Shown: positions 13,371 through 45,450 of the stretch, piece after piece
Numbering within the stretch: the stretch's first letter is position 1
Layout of the letters: each line of letters starts with the position of its first letter
Source of the DNA: Woeseiaceae bacterium
GTDB lineage: Bacteria; Pseudomonadota; Gammaproteobacteria; Steroidobacterales; Woeseiaceae
Assembly (NCBI GenBank): GCA_030066075.1
Contig: JASJCH010000024.1
Span: forward strand, 1 to 52,658
DNA: 52,658 bases
Reading direction: 5' to 3'
Program-made: the position numbers and the translations under genes
Notes under the pieces: model-generated
The model's database searches: none
Told to the model about the DNA's origin: nothing
What the model saw: the letters and a program-made list of their open reading frames with translations, nothing else

Positions 13371-13444
13371 AAATCCAGTTGATCCGGGGACTTGGATCAG
13401 TGAGACTGTGATGCTCGTGCAATCGCTTGAGTACACCTGACCGT

Positions 13445-15163
13445 ATGGCAGTGACGGCAACACAAACAAACCTGGCTGGCCTGCCGCGGCGGCTCGTGCA
13501 GGACGGATTGATATCCGAGGAGAAGCTCGTCGAGGCGACCGAAACCGCCAAGAAAGAGAAGCTTCCCCTGGTTGCCTACCTCGTCAACGAAGAGCTCGCC
13601 GATCCCCGGGCGATCGCCGTTGCAGCGTCCCACGAATTCGGTGTTCCGCTGCTCGATCTGGACGCTATCGACGTCGATATCGACGTCGTTCGGGCCGTTG
13701 ATCAGAAGCTCATCAACAAGCATCGCGTCCTGCCGCTCGTGCAGCGGGGGCAACGCCTGTTCCTCGGCATCTCCGACCCGACCAACCTCGCCGCGATCGA
13801 TGACATCAAGTTCCAGACGAGCCTGCGCATCGACCCGGTGGTCGTCGAGCAGGACAAGCTCGAGGAGCGCATCGTCAAGGCGATCGAGGCGGTCGACACG
13901 ACGATGGGTGATCTCGCCGACGATGACTTCGACCTCGAGAACCTCGACGTCACCGGCGACGACGACGACGAGGAGGACATCCACAAGGACGACATCGAAG
14001 ACGCGCCGGTCGTTCGTTTCGTCAACAAGATCCTGCTCGACGCGATCAAACGCGGCGCCTCCGATATCCACTTCGAGCCCTACGAGAAGTACTTCCGGGT
14101 GCGTACCCGACTCGATGGCGTGCTGTCGGAAGTCGCGCAGCCCCCGGTCGTGCTGGCCAACAAGGTCTGTGCCCGCCTGAAAGTCATGTCACGCATGGAC
14201 ATTGCCGAGCGACGCGTGCCGCAGGACGGCCGCATCAAGATGCGGCTTTCCAAGAACCGGGCGATCGATTTTCGTGTCAATACCTGCCCGACGCTGTTCG
14301 GCGAGAAGATCGTACTGCGTATTCTCGACCCGTCGAGCGCCAAGCTGGGTATCGAGATGCTCGGTTATGAAGATCACCAGCGCGCGCTGTACGAGAAGCA
14401 TCTCGCCAAGCCGTACGGCATGATTCTCGTCACGGGACCGACGGGTTCGGGTAAGACGGTTTCGCTGTATACGGGCCTCAACATTCTCAATACCGAGGAC
14501 CGCAATATTTCGACCGCGGAGGACCCGGCTGAAATCAACCTGCCGGGCATCAACCAGGTCAACGTCAACCCGAAGGTCGGCCTGACCTTCGCGTCGTCAC
14601 TGAAAGCCTTCCTGCGCCAGGATCCGGACATCATCATGGTCGGTGAGATTCGTGACCTCGAGACGGCCGAGATTGCGATCAAGGCGGCGCAGACCGGTCA
14701 CCTCGTGTTGTCCACCCTGCATACCAATGACGCGCCGCGCACCCTGACGCGACTCGTCGATATGGGCGTCAAGCCCTACGCTATCGCCACGTCCGTGAGC
14801 CTGATCATCGCGCAGCGACTGGCCCGGCGACTCTGCGATAACTGTAAGGAAATCAAGGATATACCGAGAGAAGCCCTCGAGAAGGAAGGCTTCTCCGCGG
14901 AAGACCTGGAGGCAGGTCTGACGATCTACGGGCCGAAGGGCTGCAAGAGCTGCAACGACGGCTACAAAGGCCGTGTCGGTGTCTTCCAGGTCATGGAAGT
15001 ATCCGAGGCCATGGGCAGAATCATAATGGAAGGCGGCAACGCCATGCAGATCGCCGACCAGGCGGCAACAGAGGGGGTCATCGATTTACGACAGGCCGGA
15101 TTGAATAAAGTCAAGGAAGGGGTTACCAGCCTTGAGGAGATCAATCGGGTTACAATTGAATAG
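13445..15163 (+). CDS. pilB: Type IV pilus extension ATPase PilB
   Basis: Hexameric cytoplasmic ATPase that powers pilus extension with PilC. The 572-residue protein has an N-terminal MshEN/T2SSE-N domain (about 10-170), an acidic linker (DDDFDLENLDVTGDDDDEED) and the GspE ATPase core. Visible motifs are Walker A GPTGSGKT, Asp box TAEDPAEI, Walker B IIMVGEIRDLETAE and His box TGHLVLSTLHTNDA. A C-terminal zinc site has two CxxC pairs (CDNC and CKSC). ATG 13445 is chosen because it gives the usual MAVTATQTNL start; an in-frame TTG at 13427 is an alternative. Followed by pilC after 29 bases. Confidence 0.97.
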   Translation: MAVTATQTNLAGLPRRLVQDGLISEEKLVEATETAKKEKLPLVAYLVNEELADPRAIAVAASHEFGVPLLDLDAIDVDIDVVRAVDQKLINKHRVLPLVQRGQRLFLGISDPTNLAAIDDIKFQTSLRIDPVVVEQDKLEERIVKAIEAVDTTMGDLADDDFDLENLDVTGDDDDEEDIHKDDIEDAPVVRFVNKILLDAIKRGASDIHFEPYEKYFRVRTRLDGVLSEVAQPPVVLANKVCARLKVMSRMDIAERRVPQDGRIKMRLSKNRAIDFRVNTCPTLFGEKIVLRILDPSSAKLGIEMLGYEDHQRALYEKHLAKPYGMILVTGPTGSGKTVSLYTGLNILNTEDRNISTAEDPAEINLPGINQVNVNPKVGLTFASSLKAFLRQDPDIIMVGEIRDLETAEIAIKAAQTGHLVLSTLHTNDAPRTLTRLVDMGVKPYAIATSVSLIIAQRLARRLCDNCKEIKDIPREALEKEGFSAEDLEAGLTIYGPKGCKSCNDGYKGRVGVFQVMEVSEAMGRIIMEGGNAMQIADQAATEGVIDLRQAGLNKVKEGVTSLEEINRVTIE

Positions 15164-19184: not shown

Positions 19185-22151
19185 TCAGCCCAGTTTGCCG
19201 TGGCACTGCTTGTATTTCTTGCCCGAACCGCACGGACAGGGCTCGTTGCGTCCTACCTTGCGACCGTCGCGCTTGAAGGTCTCGGGGCGCGGCGCAGCGG
19301 CGGGAGCCGGCGCCCCGCCCACGGTGCGATACGGCTGACCCTGCCCGGGTTGCTGACCCTGCGCGGGCTGCTGGCCCTGCGGCGCCTGGCCGGACAGCGC
19401 GGATGCCTGGGCATGCTGGAACCGCATGGCCGCGGCAGCGCGCTTGCGCTCTTCCTCGTCGTCCAGGTCCTGCTCGCCCTGCACGCGAATGCGGGACAGG
19501 ACGCTGATGCTGTCGTGCTTGACCTGTTCCAGCATCGAGCCAAACATCTCGAAAGCCTCGCGCTTGTACTCCTGCTTCGGATTCTTCTGCGCGTAGGATC
19601 GTAATCCGATGCCCTGGCGCAAGTGGTCCATGCCCGCAAGATGCTCCTTCCAGTGCTGGTCGAGCTGGCGCAGCATGACCTGCTTCTCGACCGTGCGCAT
19701 GAGTTCCGCGCCGATTTTTTCCTCGCGGGACTTGTACGCCTCGTCACTGGCTTCGATGCAGCGGTCGAGGATACCGTCCTCGTTGAGCGTCGATTCTTCG
19801 CGCAGCCACTGGGCGATATCGAGCTGCAGGCCGAAATCCGACTCCAGGGCCTTGGCAAGCCCGTCAACGTCCCACTGCTCGTCGAGGCTGCCGGGGGGAA
19901 TGTGGTCCTGCACGGCGTTGCCGATAACCTCGTGCCGGATCGCGACGACCGACTCCTCGATCTCGTCGGCTTCCATCAGCTCCGAACGCTGGTGGTAAAC
20001 CACCTTGCGCTGATCATTAGCGACGTCGTCGTATTCGAGCAGGTTCTTGCGAATGTCGAAGTTGTGGGCTTCCACCTTGCGCTGCGCACGCTCGATCTGC
20101 CGCGACAGCAATTTGCTTTCGATCGCTTCGCCCGGGCGCATGCCGGCTCGGGACAGCAGCGACTTGGTGCGCTCGGGATCGCCGAAGATCCGCATCAGCG
20201 TGTCTTCCATCGACAGGTAGAAGCGCGACGAACCGGGGTCGCCCTGGCGACCGCTGCGGCCCCTTAGCTGGTTGTCGATACGGCGCGACTCGTGCCGTTC
20301 AGTGCCCACGATGTGCAGGCCGCCGGCCTCGAGCACGGCATTGTGGCGCTCCTGCCATTCGTTGCGGATTGCCTCTTCGCTGCGATCCTCGCCGGCCTCG
20401 GCGAGTTCGGCCTCGAGGTTGCCGCCGAGCACGATATCGGTGCCGCGGCCCGCCATGTTGGTTGCAATCGTGATGGCGCCGGGGCGCCCCGCCTGCTGCA
20501 CGATGACCGCTTCTCGCTCGTGCTGCTTGGCATTGAGCACCTCGTGCTCAATCTTCTTGTTCCTCAGGTGCTTGGACAGCAGCTCGGAGGTCTCAATGGA
20601 CGTCGTGCCAACCAGCACCGGCTGGCCGCGTTCACGGCAGTCGGCGATATCCTCGACGATAGCGTCGAATTTGTCTTCCTCGGTGAGGTAGACCAGATCG
20701 GCGCCATCATCCCTGATCATCGGTACGTTCGTCGGGATCACGACGACCTCGAGGCCGTAGATCTGCTGGAACTCGAAGGCTTCCGTATCGGCCGTGCCCG
20801 TCATTCCCGACAGGTTGCTGTAGAGCCGGAAGAAGTTCTGGAAGGTAATCGACGCGACCGTCTGGTTTTCCTGCTTGATCGCCACGCCTTCCTTGGCCTC
20901 GATGGCCTGGTGCAGCCCGTCCGACCAGCGCCGGCCGGGCATCGTGCGGCCCGTGAATTCGTCGACGATAACGACCTCACCGTTGGCAACCACGTACTCG
21001 ACGTCTTTCTTGAAGATCGCGTGGGCTCGCAGCGCCGCGTTGAGATGGTGCAGCAAGCGGATATTGCCGGCGTCGTAAAGGCTCTCGCCTTCCTGCAACA
21101 GCCCGGCCTGCATCATCATCGCTTCGACTTTCTGGTGGCCGTCCTCGGTGAGGTAGGCCTGCTTGGCTTTCTCGTCAGTCGTGAAGTCGCCGCGTTTGAC
21201 GAGCTTGCACACGACGGGCTTGTTGCTGTCGTCGACGAGCACGACGTCAGCCTGCTGCTCGTCGCCCACATCCACGGCCTGCTCGAGCGGTATGACGTCC
21301 TGCGCCACGCCGTCTTCGCCGGTCACGGTAACTGGCAGTCCGTTGAGCCCCTTGAGCGTGACGTTCTTGGCCAGGATCTCGTAGTTGGCGGGCTGTTCGG
21401 TTTCTTCGTGCCTCGTCAGCTTCGGCACCAGTTTGTTGATCTGCGCGTAAAGGTCGGTGCTGGCCTCGGCAGGCCCCGAGATGATGAGCGGCGTACGCGC
21501 CTCATCGATGAGGATCGAGTCAACCTCGTCGACGATCGCGAAGGTCAGGTCGCGCTGCACCTTGTCTTCGAGAGAGAACGCCAGGTTGTCGCGCAGGTAG
21601 TCGAACCCGAGCTCATTGTTGGTCGCGTAGGTGATGTCGCTGTTGTAGGCGGCACGCTTTTCCTCCTGCGTCTGGCCGCTCTTCGACACGCCGACCGTGA
21701 GACCGAGAAACTCGTAGACCGGTCGCATCCAGTCGGCGTCGCGCTGCGCCAGGTACTCATTGACCGTGACGATGTGCACGCTGTCGCCACTCAGGGCGTT
21801 GAGATAAGCGGGCAGCGTGGCGACGAGCGTCTTGCCTTCACCGGTCCGCATCTCGGCAATGTTACCGTCGTGCAGCACCATGCCGCCGATCAGCTGTACG
21901 TCGAACGGTCGCAGGCCCAGAGTCCTGCGCGACGACTCCCGTGCCACGGCGAATGCCTCCGGCAACAGCTGGTCGAGGGTGGCGCCGTCCTTGTAGCGCT
22001 GCCTGAATTCGTCGGTCTTGGCGCGCAGGGCCTCGTCATCAAGAGCCTGCAGGCCCTCTTCCTGAGCGTTGATCTTTTTGACGATTTTGCCGTACTGGCG
22101 CAGCAGCCGCTGGTTACGGCTGCCGAAAATGCTGGTCAAGAAATTAGCCAC
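19185..22151 (-). CDS. secA: Preprotein translocase ATPase SecA, with enlarged nucleotide-binding domain
   Basis: Motor that pushes unfolded preproteins through SecYEG. It starts at GTG 22151 ([17 protein letters not shown]), where AGGAG lies five bases upstream; the longer frame to 22181 has no such site. Walker A is MRTGEGKT (101-108) and the DEAD-like box VDEVDS (207-212). The preprotein cross-linking, scaffold and wing regions follow, and the C-terminus is a SecB/zinc motif ([14 protein letters not shown]). It has 988 residues against about 901 in E. coli. The excess is an insertion at about 253-320 in NBD1 and a Gln/Gly/Pro-rich C-terminal linker. A possible -10 TACAAT lies at 22195-22190. 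Confidence 0.97.
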
Positions 22152-22266
22152 GGGGGCTCCTGCGATTCTACGGGCGCGCAAAGCCCGCTATTGTATCTAA
22201 AGTCGCGAAATAAAGGCGATTATTGGGATTTCAACCCGCGGGAAACGAGGCCAGCGACGGGGCGGC

Positions 22267-23199
22267 TTATTTGCCGGAGCCGCGGATAAAATTGACGGGG
22301 TTTACCCGGCGCCCGTTCTTGACGACCTCGAAGTGCAGGTTGGGGCCTGTTGCCCGGCCGGTCTCTCCCATCAGGGCGATGACCTGGCCTTTCTTGACCT
22401 CGTCGCCGACGGCGACGAGATTCTCGGAATTGTGCGCGTAGCGCGTGGCATAGCCGTTGCCGTGGTTGATCTCGACCATGATGCCGTAGCCGAAACGATC
22501 GGCAGACCAGGTAACGACACCGTCCGCGACCGCGCTGATCGGGTCGCCATACTTGCCGGCGAAATCAATGCCCGTGTGATTGGCTGGCTTGCCCGTAAAC
22601 GGGTCGGTGCGCTTGCCGAAGTAAGACGAAACCCAGCCGGAACCGACCGGGCGACCCTGCGGGTAGACGCGCTCGCTGAGGTTCTGGCCCATGAGCACGT
22701 CCTCGAGCACGACGAGCTGCGCTTCGCGGTCTTCGAGCTGCTGGTCCAGTGAGGCCATGGACTCGACAAGCTCGGGCACTGCGACATTCGAACCCGTGGG
22801 CATCGGCTCTTCCGGGCCGCCGAGCGCCGGCTCGCTGTCGAAATCGAATTCGCCGTCCTCGATATCGGCCATGTCGGTCAGGCGACGACCGAGGGCGTCG
22901 AGGCGGATGACGCGTGCGTTCATCTGGGCGATGCGAATCGCCAGGGCGTCGAGCGTGTCTTCGTTACCCTGGCGAATGGACTCGATGCTCTCGCGCTGTT
23001 CCTGCAACTCGTCGTTGAGCTGAGCGACTTCGTTGAGGCTCACGCCGGAACCCGTCATCGAGGAATACCAGTAGCCGCCCGCGAACCCGAAGGCCGAGAC
23101 GAGGCCGACAACGGCAACGGCAACCAGCCACACCGACGCACCGGCGAGGTTGATCTGCCTGGCCTTGCCAAGCCCTTTTCCAAAGATGACTACATTCAT
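22267..23199 (-). CDS. M23-family peptidase-like membrane protein, catalytic His replaced by Asn
   Basis: LytM/M23 protein of 310 residues. One N-terminal membrane segment (about 22-45) and a coiled coil (about 55-115) precede a periplasmic M23 domain (180-305). Zinc ligands His208 and Asp212 (HTGID) and His289 (LHFEV), and the catalytic His256 (YAHN), are present. The first His of the HxH motif is Asn287 (GPNLHFEV). It may be a weak endopeptidase or, like degenerate LytM factors, a regulator of other hydrolases. GTG at 23202 is an alternative start. It sits upstream of secA, as related genes do in pseudomonads, and its leader carries a c-di-GMP riboswitch. Confidence 0.88.
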   Translation of the reverse strand: MNVVIFGKGLGKARQINLAGASVWLVAVAVVGLVSAFGFAGGYWYSSMTGSGVSLNEVAQLNDELQEQRESIESIRQGNEDTLDALAIRIAQMNARVIRLDALGRRLTDMADIEDGEFDFDSEPALGGPEEPMPTGSNVAVPELVESMASLDQQLEDREAQLVVLEDVLMGQNLSERVYPQGRPVGSGWVSSYFGKRTDPFTGKPANHTGIDFAGKYGDPISAVADGVVTWSADRFGYGIMVEINHGNGYATRYAHNSENLVAVGDEVKKGQVIALMGETGRATGPNLHFEVVKNGRRVNPVNFIRGSGK

Positions 23200-23312
23200 C
23201 ACAAACGTCCCGGTAGAACCTGGGTCGGTATCCTGTTCGCAGAGCCCCTCAGTATTGAACGGCAGTCTTTTGGCCGCTTCCGGCCATTGTTGTTGCTTGC
23301 CTGCCTGACTTC

Positions 23313-23409
23313 CGCTTCCACTTCGGTAGCCCCGCTGTCCTAGGCTTGCGCCCTTAGACCGGTGGTTTTGCGCCCCCGTTTTTCAACGGGTTTGCCCTTA
23401 TCGGAAGCG
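23313..23409 (-). ncRNA. Cyclic di-GMP-I riboswitch (GEMM-I) in the leader of the M23 peptidase gene
   Basis: Read on the minus strand, the 97 bases hold every conserved block of the GEMM-I aptamer in order. Closing stem P1 is CGCTTCC (23409-23403) with GGAAGCG (23319-23313). Next come GGGCAAACC, the P2 hairpin CCCGTT-GAAA-AACGGG with its GNRA loop, CGCAAA, the tetraloop receptor side CCACCGGTCTAAGG, and the P3 region ending AGCGGGGCTACCG. These match the V. cholerae Vc2 aptamer block for block. About 110 bases separate it from the peptidase start. A hairpin at 23271-23286 (TGGCCG/CGGCCA) in that gap contains a second GGAAGCG that could compete for P1. Confidence 0.93.
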
Positions 23410-23510
23410 TCAATATGCATAATGTCGGTTTTTAATACAAGATAAGGTCTTTCGAAGGGTGACCTAAGTCCCCGGAAATCCACCAAAATCGCCAACTGCG
23501 TCACATTTTT

Positions 23511-23813
23511 ATGTCGGTCAAAAGCCTCGAAAATCTGTTAAATCCCAATGATAACGGGGGCTTAGGCGACATCGTCCGGCACGCCAGGGATATGGGCGAG
23601 CTTGTCAGCGCGCTACAGCAGGCTTTACCGGGCGAAATCGCGCAACAGGTCCTCGCCGCCAATATTCGCGACGACGGCCAGCTGGTCGTTCTCACCAGCT
23701 CACCAGCCTGGGCCGCCAAGCTGCGTTTTGAGGCGGACACTTTGATGGCCGCGGCGCGGCAGAGTTCCGCAGAGGTGACATCCTGCAAAGTCAGGGTTCG
23801 CCGCGACGGCTGA
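23511..23813 (+). CDS. dciA: DUF721 protein, probable helicase loader DciA
   Basis: DciA-family (DUF721) proteins load or recruit the replicative helicase DnaB in bacteria that lack DnaC. The 100-residue protein has the family core (LVSALQQALPGEIAQQVLAANIRDDGQLVVLTSS, here split by eye into helix then strands) followed by WAAKLRFEADTLM. It is near minimal size for the family. Related DUF721 genes lie next to secA and lpxC in other gammaproteobacteria. It is divergent from the riboswitch-controlled peptidase gene and probably co-transcribed with the next two genes (gaps of 9 and 1 bases). Confidence 0.85.
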   Translation: MSVKSLENLLNPNDNGGLGDIVRHARDMGELVSALQQALPGEIAQQVLAANIRDDGQLVVLTSSPAWAAKLRFEADTLMAAARQSSAEVTSCKVRVRRDG

Positions 23814-45095: not shown

Positions 45096-45109
45096 GCTGG
45101 TCGAGAAAT

Positions 45110-45450
45110 CAGGAGCCGGCAGTAAGCCGGGTTCTGTCTGGGGCAATCATTCATCTGGGACAGCTGTCACCAACTGCCTCTAGCAACCTACCCGGAAGCC
45201 CGCTCGGGACCGGCGGTTCGCTTCCCTATTTGGTCTTGCTCCAGGCGGGGTTTACCGTGCCGCGAGCTGTTACCAGTCGCGCGGTGCGCTCTTACCGCAC
45301 CTTTTCACCCTTACCATTGCTGGCGGTATATTTTCTGTGGCACTTTCCGTGGGCTCGCGCCCCCCAGGCGTTACCTGGCGCCTTGTCCGAAGGAGCCCGG
45401 ACTTTCCTCCACAGATCAAAGACCTGCAGCGATTGCCTGGCCGACTCCTG
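45110..45450 (-). ncRNA. rnpB: RNase P RNA (type A)
   Basis: Catalytic RNA that matures tRNA 5' ends. Helix P1 pairs CAGGAGTCGGC (45450-45440) with GCCGGCTCCTG (45120-45110), with one G-U. Conserved blocks follow in order on the minus strand: GGAGGAAAGTCCGGGCTCC (P4 5' side), GGTAACGCCTGGGGGG, GTGCCACAGAAA, AGGGTGAAAAGGTGCGGTAA, ACCAAATAGGG, and the 3' P4 block ACAGAACCCGGCTTA. End positions are set from P1. rsmI ends 20 bases upstream. A -10-like TAGAAT at 45472-45467 overlaps the rsmI stop. Confidence 0.97.

What the first reader, a model, noticed from the sequence alone, without database searches (positions are those of the whole stretch)
23313..23409. Cyclic di-GMP-I riboswitch upstream of an M23 peptidase gene next to secA
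The minus strand carries a complete GEMM-I aptamer: a 7-bp P1, GGGCAAACC, a GAAA-capped P2, CGCAAA, the CCGGTCTAAGG receptor and AGCGGGGCTACCG. The regulated gene is a peptidoglycan-hydrolase-like membrane protein, so c-di-GMP would tune cell-wall remodelling directly at the RNA level. secA and mutT lie downstream on the same strand and could be affected by read-through. The pilus locus, a classic c-di-GMP output, is in the same window.
Basis: partly seen in the sequence, partly recalled or inferred. Interest (0 to 1): 0.82.

Follow-up and report, generated by a model that had tools for sequence, protein, structure and literature searches.

The report
Cyclic-di-GMP riboswitch before peptidase gene
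A marine-sediment bacterium carries what looks like a genuine cyclic-di-GMP-sensing RNA switch in front of a cell-wall peptidase gene, at a place kept by its relatives; the switch type is well known, but this conserved target and its unexplained output structure are worth recording.

Summary
Window 23406-23322 (-) is a complete c-di-GMP-I (GEMM-I) aptamer: 84.5 bits, gathering score 35, E 2.7e-15. It lies between a promoter-like site and an M23 peptidase gene, divergent from dciA, in a Woeseiaceae-like MAG with six such matches and 20 GGDEF domains.

The placement is conserved: 35 of 35 same-genus orthologues, 14 of 16 leaders from other genera of the family, 11 of 19 M23-secA loci elsewhere in the order. 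All 13 genomes found without GGDEF lack RF01051 matches.

Corrections: secA has its own promoter-like element (51 of 52 loci), so c-di-GMP control of secA is doubtful. The peptidase has Asn at a usual active-site His. PilB's MshEN domain lacks the binding motif. No intrinsic terminator or aptamer-dependent SD masking was found; platform and sign of regulation are unknown.

New member of a known kind. Separate curiosity: this SecA carries an IF3-N-like insertion.

The parts
23322..23406 (-). c-di-GMP-I (GEMM-I) riboswitch aptamer, RF01051
   Evidence: 84.5 bits, E 2.7e-15, model 1-87/87; conserved in orthologous loci
23403..23409 (-). 5' strand of the P1 complementarity (CGCTTCC)
   Evidence: read; P1 in 20 relatives 72.9% of cells paired, no two-sided change
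23313..23319 (-). 3' strand of P1 (GGAAGCG)
   Evidence: read
23435..23440 (-). promoter -35-like TTGTAT
   Evidence: pattern TTG-N19..22-CA[TC][AT][TG]T in 70 of 82 leaders, 0.4 expected in mononucleotide shuffles; position
23412..23417 (-). promoter -10-like CATATT
   Evidence: as above; the generic sigma-70 consensus scan found no promoter here
23200..23321 (-). leader between aptamer and start codon, 122 nt; candidate expression platform of unknown mechanism
   Evidence: 121-122 nt in many diverged relatives; no terminator-like site on this strand in it
23261..23305 (-). possible platform helix GGCAG/CTGCC (23305-23301 with 23265-23261) enclosing an A-rich 5' bulge (23300-23286) and hairpin GGCCGGAAGCGGCC (23285-23272)
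   Evidence: read by eye. Similar helices in relatives: another subgroup 82.6% of cells paired versus at most 41.2% slid; the window's own set 68.6% versus at most 45.0%. The number of two-sided pairs did not exceed slid controls in either
22267..23199 (-). likely regulated gene: M23 metallopeptidase-like protein, 310 aa from ATG
   Evidence: PF01551 115.6 bits; solved relatives from E 8.2e-25; below every listed NCBIfam cut-off; Asn288 at one active-site position
22190..22195 (-). promoter-like -10 TACAAT of secA in the M23-secA gap (position counted by hand)
   Evidence: TA[GCA]AATA pattern in 51 of 52 family loci, 0.6 expected in mononucleotide shuffles
19185..22151 (-). secA; likely GTG start at 22151 (placed by eye)
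   Evidence: TIGR00963 and Pfam SecA domains; same strand as M23 in 156 of 156 loci with both genes
23511..23813 (+). divergent gene dciA (DUF721)
   Evidence: PF05258 50.3 bits

Best explanation
This is a working c-di-GMP-I riboswitch in the 5' leader of an M23-type peptidase gene. Transcription starts at a conserved promoter just upstream; the aptamer is the first structure made and binds c-di-GMP (G at the specificity position, recalled as Vc2 position 20). Binding changes the fate of a roughly 120-nt leader before the start codon and so sets M23 protein output. Shown here by sequence: aptamer, promoter-like site, target gene, conservation, and joint absence with diguanylate cyclases. Inferred: ligand binding, that M23 is the main target, and that control acts through translation, mRNA stability or Rho rather than an intrinsic terminator. 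The sign (on or off) is unknown. secA is probably expressed mainly from its own promoter with some read-through.
For: Rfam match with every class element. Same leader before 35 of 35 same-genus orthologues; 14 of 16 orthologues of other genera of the family whose leader was held; 11 of 19 M23-secA loci of other families in the order. Promoter pattern in 70 of 82 leaders, 0.4 expected. P2 loop and P3 receptor types switch together: 62 of 64 GAAA/CAAA loops with CUA/CUG-type receptor, 14 of 14 other GNRA loops without it (correcting; not corrected for descent). Own genome has 20 GGDEF domains. 13 of 13 genomes without GGDEF have no RF01051 match; 27 of 30 with GGDEF have at least one. In same-genus reduced genomes with one GGDEF the leader decays: 27.3 bits with R1 in G103; 49.9 bits with a changed CGCAAA core in G004.
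Against: No binding or expression data. No platform mechanism was demonstrated: no terminator-like site, and SD-to-start accessibility did not differ with the aptamer removed (0.43 versus 0.43, p 0.58, 54 leaders; 0.42 with shuffled aptamer). P1 is weakly supported in relatives and the predicted start lies inside its 5' strand. Eight of 19 order-level loci outside the family (one a 17.8-bit remnant), and two family members (L165, L166), have M23 without a full aptamer, although several of those genomes have many GGDEF genes. G045 and G049 have 15 and 20 GGDEF matches and no RF01051 match.
Confidence: 0.85

Rival explanations
1. The main point of the switch is secA: M23 and secA form one operon and c-di-GMP sets the level of the Sec motor, in the place where E. 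coli has the secM-secA unit (recalled).
For: M23 and secA on the same strand in 156 of 156 loci holding both genes; no terminator-like site on this strand between them in the window.
Against: A conserved promoter-like -10 lies in the M23-secA gap in 51 of 52 family loci, 0.6 expected. Promoter activity was not tested.
Confidence: 0.12
2. The aptamer senses another cyclic dinucleotide (cGAMP type) rather than c-di-GMP.
For: Four related leaders outside the family (L042, L043, L090, L094) carry A at the specificity position; variants of this class that sense c-AMP-GMP are described (PMC7266159, passages).
Against: The window has G. By regex 72 of 78 leaders have G; the other six are those four, the remnant L046 and the misread L111; 4 of 82 leaders did not fit the regex. 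That this position sets specificity is recalled.
Confidence: 0.04
3. Translational on-switch: the aptamer tail CCGAAG pairs with UUCGG in M23 codons 6-8, and ligand binding frees the start region.
For: RNAalifold proposed tail-to-start-region pairing for one group; similar complementarity in L042-L044 by eye; single loci L096 and L045 beat most synonymous versions (p 0.02 and 0.03).
Against: Summed duplex energy over 82 leaders (-850.5) is weaker than all 200 synonymous-codon sets (mean -942.5, sd 22.2) and no stronger than locus swaps (156 of 200 swaps at least as strong). The initiation region is less folded than all 100 synonymous sets.
Confidence: 0.04
4. A relic: a decayed aptamer no longer used in this genome.
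For: Decay does occur in relatives: L170 27.3 bits, L046 17.8 bits.
Against: The window copy is intact, its genome keeps 20 GGDEF domains, and many orthologues stay above threshold over wide divergence.
Confidence: 0.03

Closest known systems
c-di-GMP-I riboswitch, RF01051 (Vibrio cholerae Vc1/Vc2, recalled)
   Same: Consensus elements, tetraloop/receptor pair and G at the specificity position; sits in a 5' leader.
   Different: Target is an M23 gene beside secA and dciA; no terminator-like site follows the aptamer, and the leader has a possible A-rich-bulge helix.
c-di-GMP-I-GGC variant, RF03167
   Same: 14 of 46 orthologous leaders that reached a threshold score best as this variant (9 of 20, 5 of 19, 0 of 7), so both variants occupy one orthologous site.
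   Different: The window copy scores best as RF01051. The paper I recall as describing the variant was not held.
EagA of Erwinia amylovora (MepM-like M23 endopeptidase; PMC7705223, passages incl. part of the abstract)
   Same: An M23 peptidase gene whose transcript rises with c-di-GMP.
   Different: There the gene is in an operon with znuA, the protein has a LysM domain and about 70% identity to MepM. Here a riboswitch precedes an M23 protein next to secA, with no LysM match in Pfam.
Degenerate M23/LytM proteins such as EnvC and NlpD (PMC9662197, passages)
   Same: An M23 fold lacking part of the catalytic set.
   Different: Here four of five positions checked are kept and only one is Asn.

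Membership tests
c-di-GMP-I riboswitch (RF01051) | Covariance-model score above the curated threshold over the whole model | tested here: met
   84.5 bits versus 35, model 1-87/87
c-di-GMP-I riboswitch (RF01051) | P2 tetraloop matched to a receptor in P3 | tested here: met
   GAAA with CTAAGG in the window; loop and receptor co-switch across 78 leaders, 4 of 82 left out for lacking CGCAAA
c-di-GMP-I riboswitch (RF01051) | Ligand-contact core: G at position 20, CGCAAA core (numbering recalled) | tested here: met
   GGGCAAACC and CGCAAA read directly
c-di-GMP-I riboswitch (RF01051) | Closing helix P1 | tested here: inconclusive
   7-bp complementarity in the window, but 72.9% paired with no two-sided change in 20 relatives and predicted start inside the 5' strand
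c-di-GMP-I riboswitch (RF01051) | Selective binding of c-di-GMP | not testable with these tools
   needs in vitro binding
c-di-GMP-I riboswitch (RF01051) | Ligand-dependent expression platform | tested here: inconclusive
   No terminator-like site, no SD-accessibility change; a possible helix of unknown role
c-di-GMP-I-GGC variant (RF03167) | Best-scoring model of the clan | tested here: not met
   RF01051 is the listed best match for the window; one lower-scoring overlapping clan match was left out by the tool
Active M23 peptidase | Metal ligands and active-site histidines (roles recalled) | tested here: not met
   H209, D213, H257, H290 present, but N288 in place of His

The most novel reading that the evidence does not exclude
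Across Woeseiaceae and kin c-di-GMP jointly sets the amount of a catalytically altered M23 protein and, by read-through, of SecA, through a platform type not described for this class: a helix with an A-rich 5' bulge at fixed distance that acts by recruiting a protein or Rho instead of a terminator or SD lock.
Probability: 0.12. Interest if true: 0.6.

Novelty: new member of a known kind. Interest (0 to 1): 0.36.

Why it matters
It gives a c-di-GMP-I riboswitch a target that is stable across one family and part of its order, next to division and secretion genes, in little-studied bacteria. Riboswitch and diguanylate cyclases are missing together in reduced genomes, which is a natural control. 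If confirmed, c-di-GMP would act on an envelope protein in the lpxC-dciA-M23-secA neighbourhood directly through RNA, and the leader may hold an undescribed platform.

Tried and rejected
Aptamer tail paired with early codons: proposed by RNAalifold; not supported against synonymous codons (all 200 sets at least as strong) or locus swaps (156 of 200 at least as strong). SD paired with codons 6-7: topped a covariation scan, equal to the best of 20 column-shuffled alignments in one group (1.55) and below it in the other (0.94 versus 1.28); set aside because the initiation region is less folded than synonymous versions (100 of 100). The platform helix of the window's group scored 0.70 in that scan, below the shuffled best (mean 1.25). 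SD masking controlled by the aptamer: no difference over 54 leaders. Intrinsic terminator: no terminator-like site on this strand in the leader or M23-secA gap; the one on this strand lies inside the M23 gene.

Platform helix controls that do not favour it: slides of -2 and +2 also gave seven two-sided pairs and 50 of 500 shuffles reached seven; all seven lie in the apical hairpin, none in the outer stem. In one search slides gave up to ten against seven, and 281 of 500 shuffles reached seven. Percentage paired and covariation score do favour it.

A separately spread platform element: model R2 from 19 leaders hit 9 of 25 genomes, one site each, all nine at M23 leaders by the coordinates; eight of the nine are training sequences, only G004 is not, and it misses the window's own subtype. 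At most 150 candidates per genome were scored. Candidate caps and stricter filters also apply to the RF01051 counts, which are lower bounds. c-di-GMP-binding motif in PilB: none by regex. My first loop/receptor table misclassified receptors; one search replaced it and one search corrected the loops of L027 and L111 by folding; its quick fold mislabelled five GAAA loops (L014, L042, L151, L152, L163), which I counted as GAAA by their letters.

Rows dropped: organisms shared by the and one search sets were not removed, so their counts are not added. The 82 leaders are the window, the 46 Rfam hits R1 hits (two are remnants, L046 and L170) and 15 of the 37 M23-upstream R1 hits. The 163 M23 sequences include duplicate loci of the same genomes.

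Papers: searches were listings; passages only were seen of PMC12452182, PMC9943018, PMC9662197, PMC7705223, PMC8835794, PMC3766115, PMC5013675 and PMC7266159. None of the passages or listings described this riboswitch before M23-secA; Woeseia with riboswitch gave 0 papers. Only open-licence papers are held.

Full report
OBSERVATION. cmscan of the whole window returns two families above threshold: RNase P class A at 45448-45108 (-), and c-di-GMP-I (RF01051) at 23406-23322 (-), 84.5 bits against 35, E 2.7e-15, full length.

SETTING. The aptamer lies in the divergent region between dciA (23511-23813 +, PF05258) and a 310-aa M23 peptidase gene (23199-22267 -, PF01551 115.6 bits). secA and a NUDIX gene follow on the same strand; lpxC, ftsZ and ftsA lie further upstream on that strand, and a pilin-PilB-PilC-PilD-CoaE-ZapD run is on the + strand. 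The window belongs to a 2.58-Mb MAG of 114 contigs, about 80% complete. Its nearest named relatives by this protein are Woeseiaceae MAGs. That genome has six RF01051 matches over threshold and 20 GGDEF matches. Of the other five aptamers, one precedes an FAD-oxidase-like ORF, three precede ORFs that look secreted, and one is cut by a contig end (all by eye).

CONSERVATION AT THE LOCUS. The M23 protein was searched in 60 relatives. In the genus, 35 of 36 genomes have a close orthologue (one, G023, reads in two frames) and all 35 have the aptamer upstream (20 of 20 and 15 of 15). Further same-genus genomes: 4 of 4 (L146-L149), plus G103 with a decayed copy at 27.3 bits (L170). In other genera of the family 14 of 16 orthologues with a leader have it; L165 and L166 do not, and L164 and L169 do not hold the start of the gene. 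Among 19 loci of other families in the order with M23 beside secA, 11 have it over threshold, one (L046) has a 17.8-bit remnant and seven have none. In named genome contigs, 37 of 80 loci have an R1 match upstream of M23 above 60 bits; one more (L099) is a 17.8-bit remnant. Teredinibacter and Oceanobacter loci (L112, L114) have none. So the pairing is old in this lineage but, on these samples, not general in Gammaproteobacteria.

A NATURAL CONTROL. Nine genomes of one genus of the family (g23; 1.1 to 2.0 Mb) have no GGDEF match and no RF01051 match (stricter filters); six of them were searched for the M23 orthologue at E 1e-40 and none has it. Four more genomes of the order without GGDEF (G041, G047, G048, G055) have no RF01051 match either. 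One of these, G055, keeps M23 beside secA without the aptamer (L050). Of 30 genomes with at least one GGDEF searched both ways, 27 have at least one RF01051 match; G045, G049 and G103 have none. The 13 GGDEF-less genomes fall in few clades, so this is suggestive, not a corrected test. In two reduced same-genus genomes with a single GGDEF, the only match is the M23 leader: G011 at 61.7 bits and G004 at 49.9 bits.

INSIDE THE APTAMER. 32 of 46 orthologous leaders that reached a threshold score best as RF01051 and 14 as the GGC variant RF03167. Across 78 leaders, 62 of 64 with a GAAA or CAAA loop have the CUA/CUG-type receptor, and 14 of 14 with another GNRA loop do not (correcting; not corrected for descent). 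That is what one expects if the P2-P3 tertiary contact is under selection. Four leaders outside the family (L042, L043, L090, L094) carry A at the position recalled as the c-di-GMP/cGAMP specificity site, while other matches in the genomes of L042 and L043 carry G.

PROMOTER. TTG-N19..22-CA[TC][AT][TG]T sits just before the aptamer in 70 of 82 leaders, 0.4 expected in mononucleotide shuffles; several misses show near versions such as GCATTCT. The stricter generic scan found no promoter. The -10-like box at 23417-23412 predicts a start near 23405. P1 is therefore uncertain in the transcript, and it is also weakly supported in relatives.

LEADER AND PLATFORM. The distance from aptamer to ATG is 121-122 nt in many diverged family members and 118-119 in another subgroup. 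In 20 sequences of that subgroup the structure with a large A-rich 5' bulge (P1 included) pairs in 82.6% of cells against at most 41.2% when slid, covariation score 0.191 against at most 0.126; its count of two-sided pairs (seven, all in the apical hairpin) is matched by two slid controls. The set holding the window is weaker: 68.6% against at most 45.0%, score 0.254 against at most 0.163, two-sided pairs no better than controls. A separate scan did not rank this helix above shuffled alignments. No terminator-like site follows on this strand. Two pairing models that would mask the start region were tested and failed. The platform is therefore unknown; Rho, a binding protein or mRNA decay remain open, and this is inference.

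TARGETS. secA is on the same strand as M23 in 156 of 156 loci holding both, of 165 loci with a hit, but the gap carries a -10-like TA[GCA]AATA in 51 of 52 family loci against 0.6 expected. I read this as an independent secA promoter; its activity is untested. The M23 protein is below all listed NCBIfam cut-offs, the best partial match being MepM. Four of five active-site positions are invariant in 163 sequences; the first His of the HxH motif is Asn in 111, His in 51 and Ser in 1, and the two solved peptidases shown in alignment have His there. Whether Asn proteins cut peptidoglycan is untested; degenerate M23 proteins can act in protein interactions (PMC9662197, passages). A precedent for c-di-GMP acting on an M23 peptidase gene is EagA (PMC7705223, passages).

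VERDICT. The riboswitch is real by sequence, conserved and probably functional; its class is known. The new parts are the conserved target, the joint absence with cyclases and the unexplained leader. No paper listed or read in passages described this pairing, which is not proof of novelty.

Noticed in passing
window 19188-22181 (-), SecA residues about 265-345: SecA carries a roughly 70-residue insertion matching the IF-3 N-terminal domain (PF05198 33.5 bits, cut-off 26.9; TIGR00168 3.5e-7, below its cut-off). In an alignment with 16 informative relatives 7 have an insertion there and 9 do not; of 5 with it scanned, 4 pass the Pfam cut-off (27.8 to 46.5 bits; L067 25.0 does not), and 2 without it show no match. 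One paper search found nothing.
   Followed up: partly
L042, L043, L090, L094: The M23 riboswitch here has A at the recalled specificity position, suggesting cGAMP or mixed ligand; other aptamers in the genomes of L042 and L043 have G.
   Followed up: partly
L180-L187 (8 of 19 aptamer loci printed from genomes G044/G057): Insert-bearing GEMM-I aptamers read AAAGCCAAA with ACGGAAAG, an apparent compensatory flip of the core pair recalled as G21-C46 (by eye).
   Followed up: no
window 13430-15160 (+): PilB has a Pfam MshEN match but no RLG and no match to the published c-di-GMP-binding motif by regex.
   Followed up: partly
window 23427-23408 (-) and relatives: Several same-genus leaders carry a near-palindrome CGACATTATGCATATTGTCG over the -10, possibly an operator; the window has a variant with one arm changed (by eye).
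   Followed up: no
window 22270-23199 (-), residue 288: A usual M23 active-site His is Asn in 111 of 163 sequences, duplicates included.
   Followed up: partly
L067 1641-1509 (-): A second GEMM-I-like match (46.7 bits) lies about 1.1 kb from the M23 aptamer on the opposite strand.
   Followed up: no
nine genomes of genus g23: Small genomes of the same family without GGDEF or RF01051 matches (9 of 9); no M23 orthologue in the 6 searched.
   Followed up: partly
window 45108-45448 (-): RNase P RNA class A, 329.5 bits.
   Followed up: no
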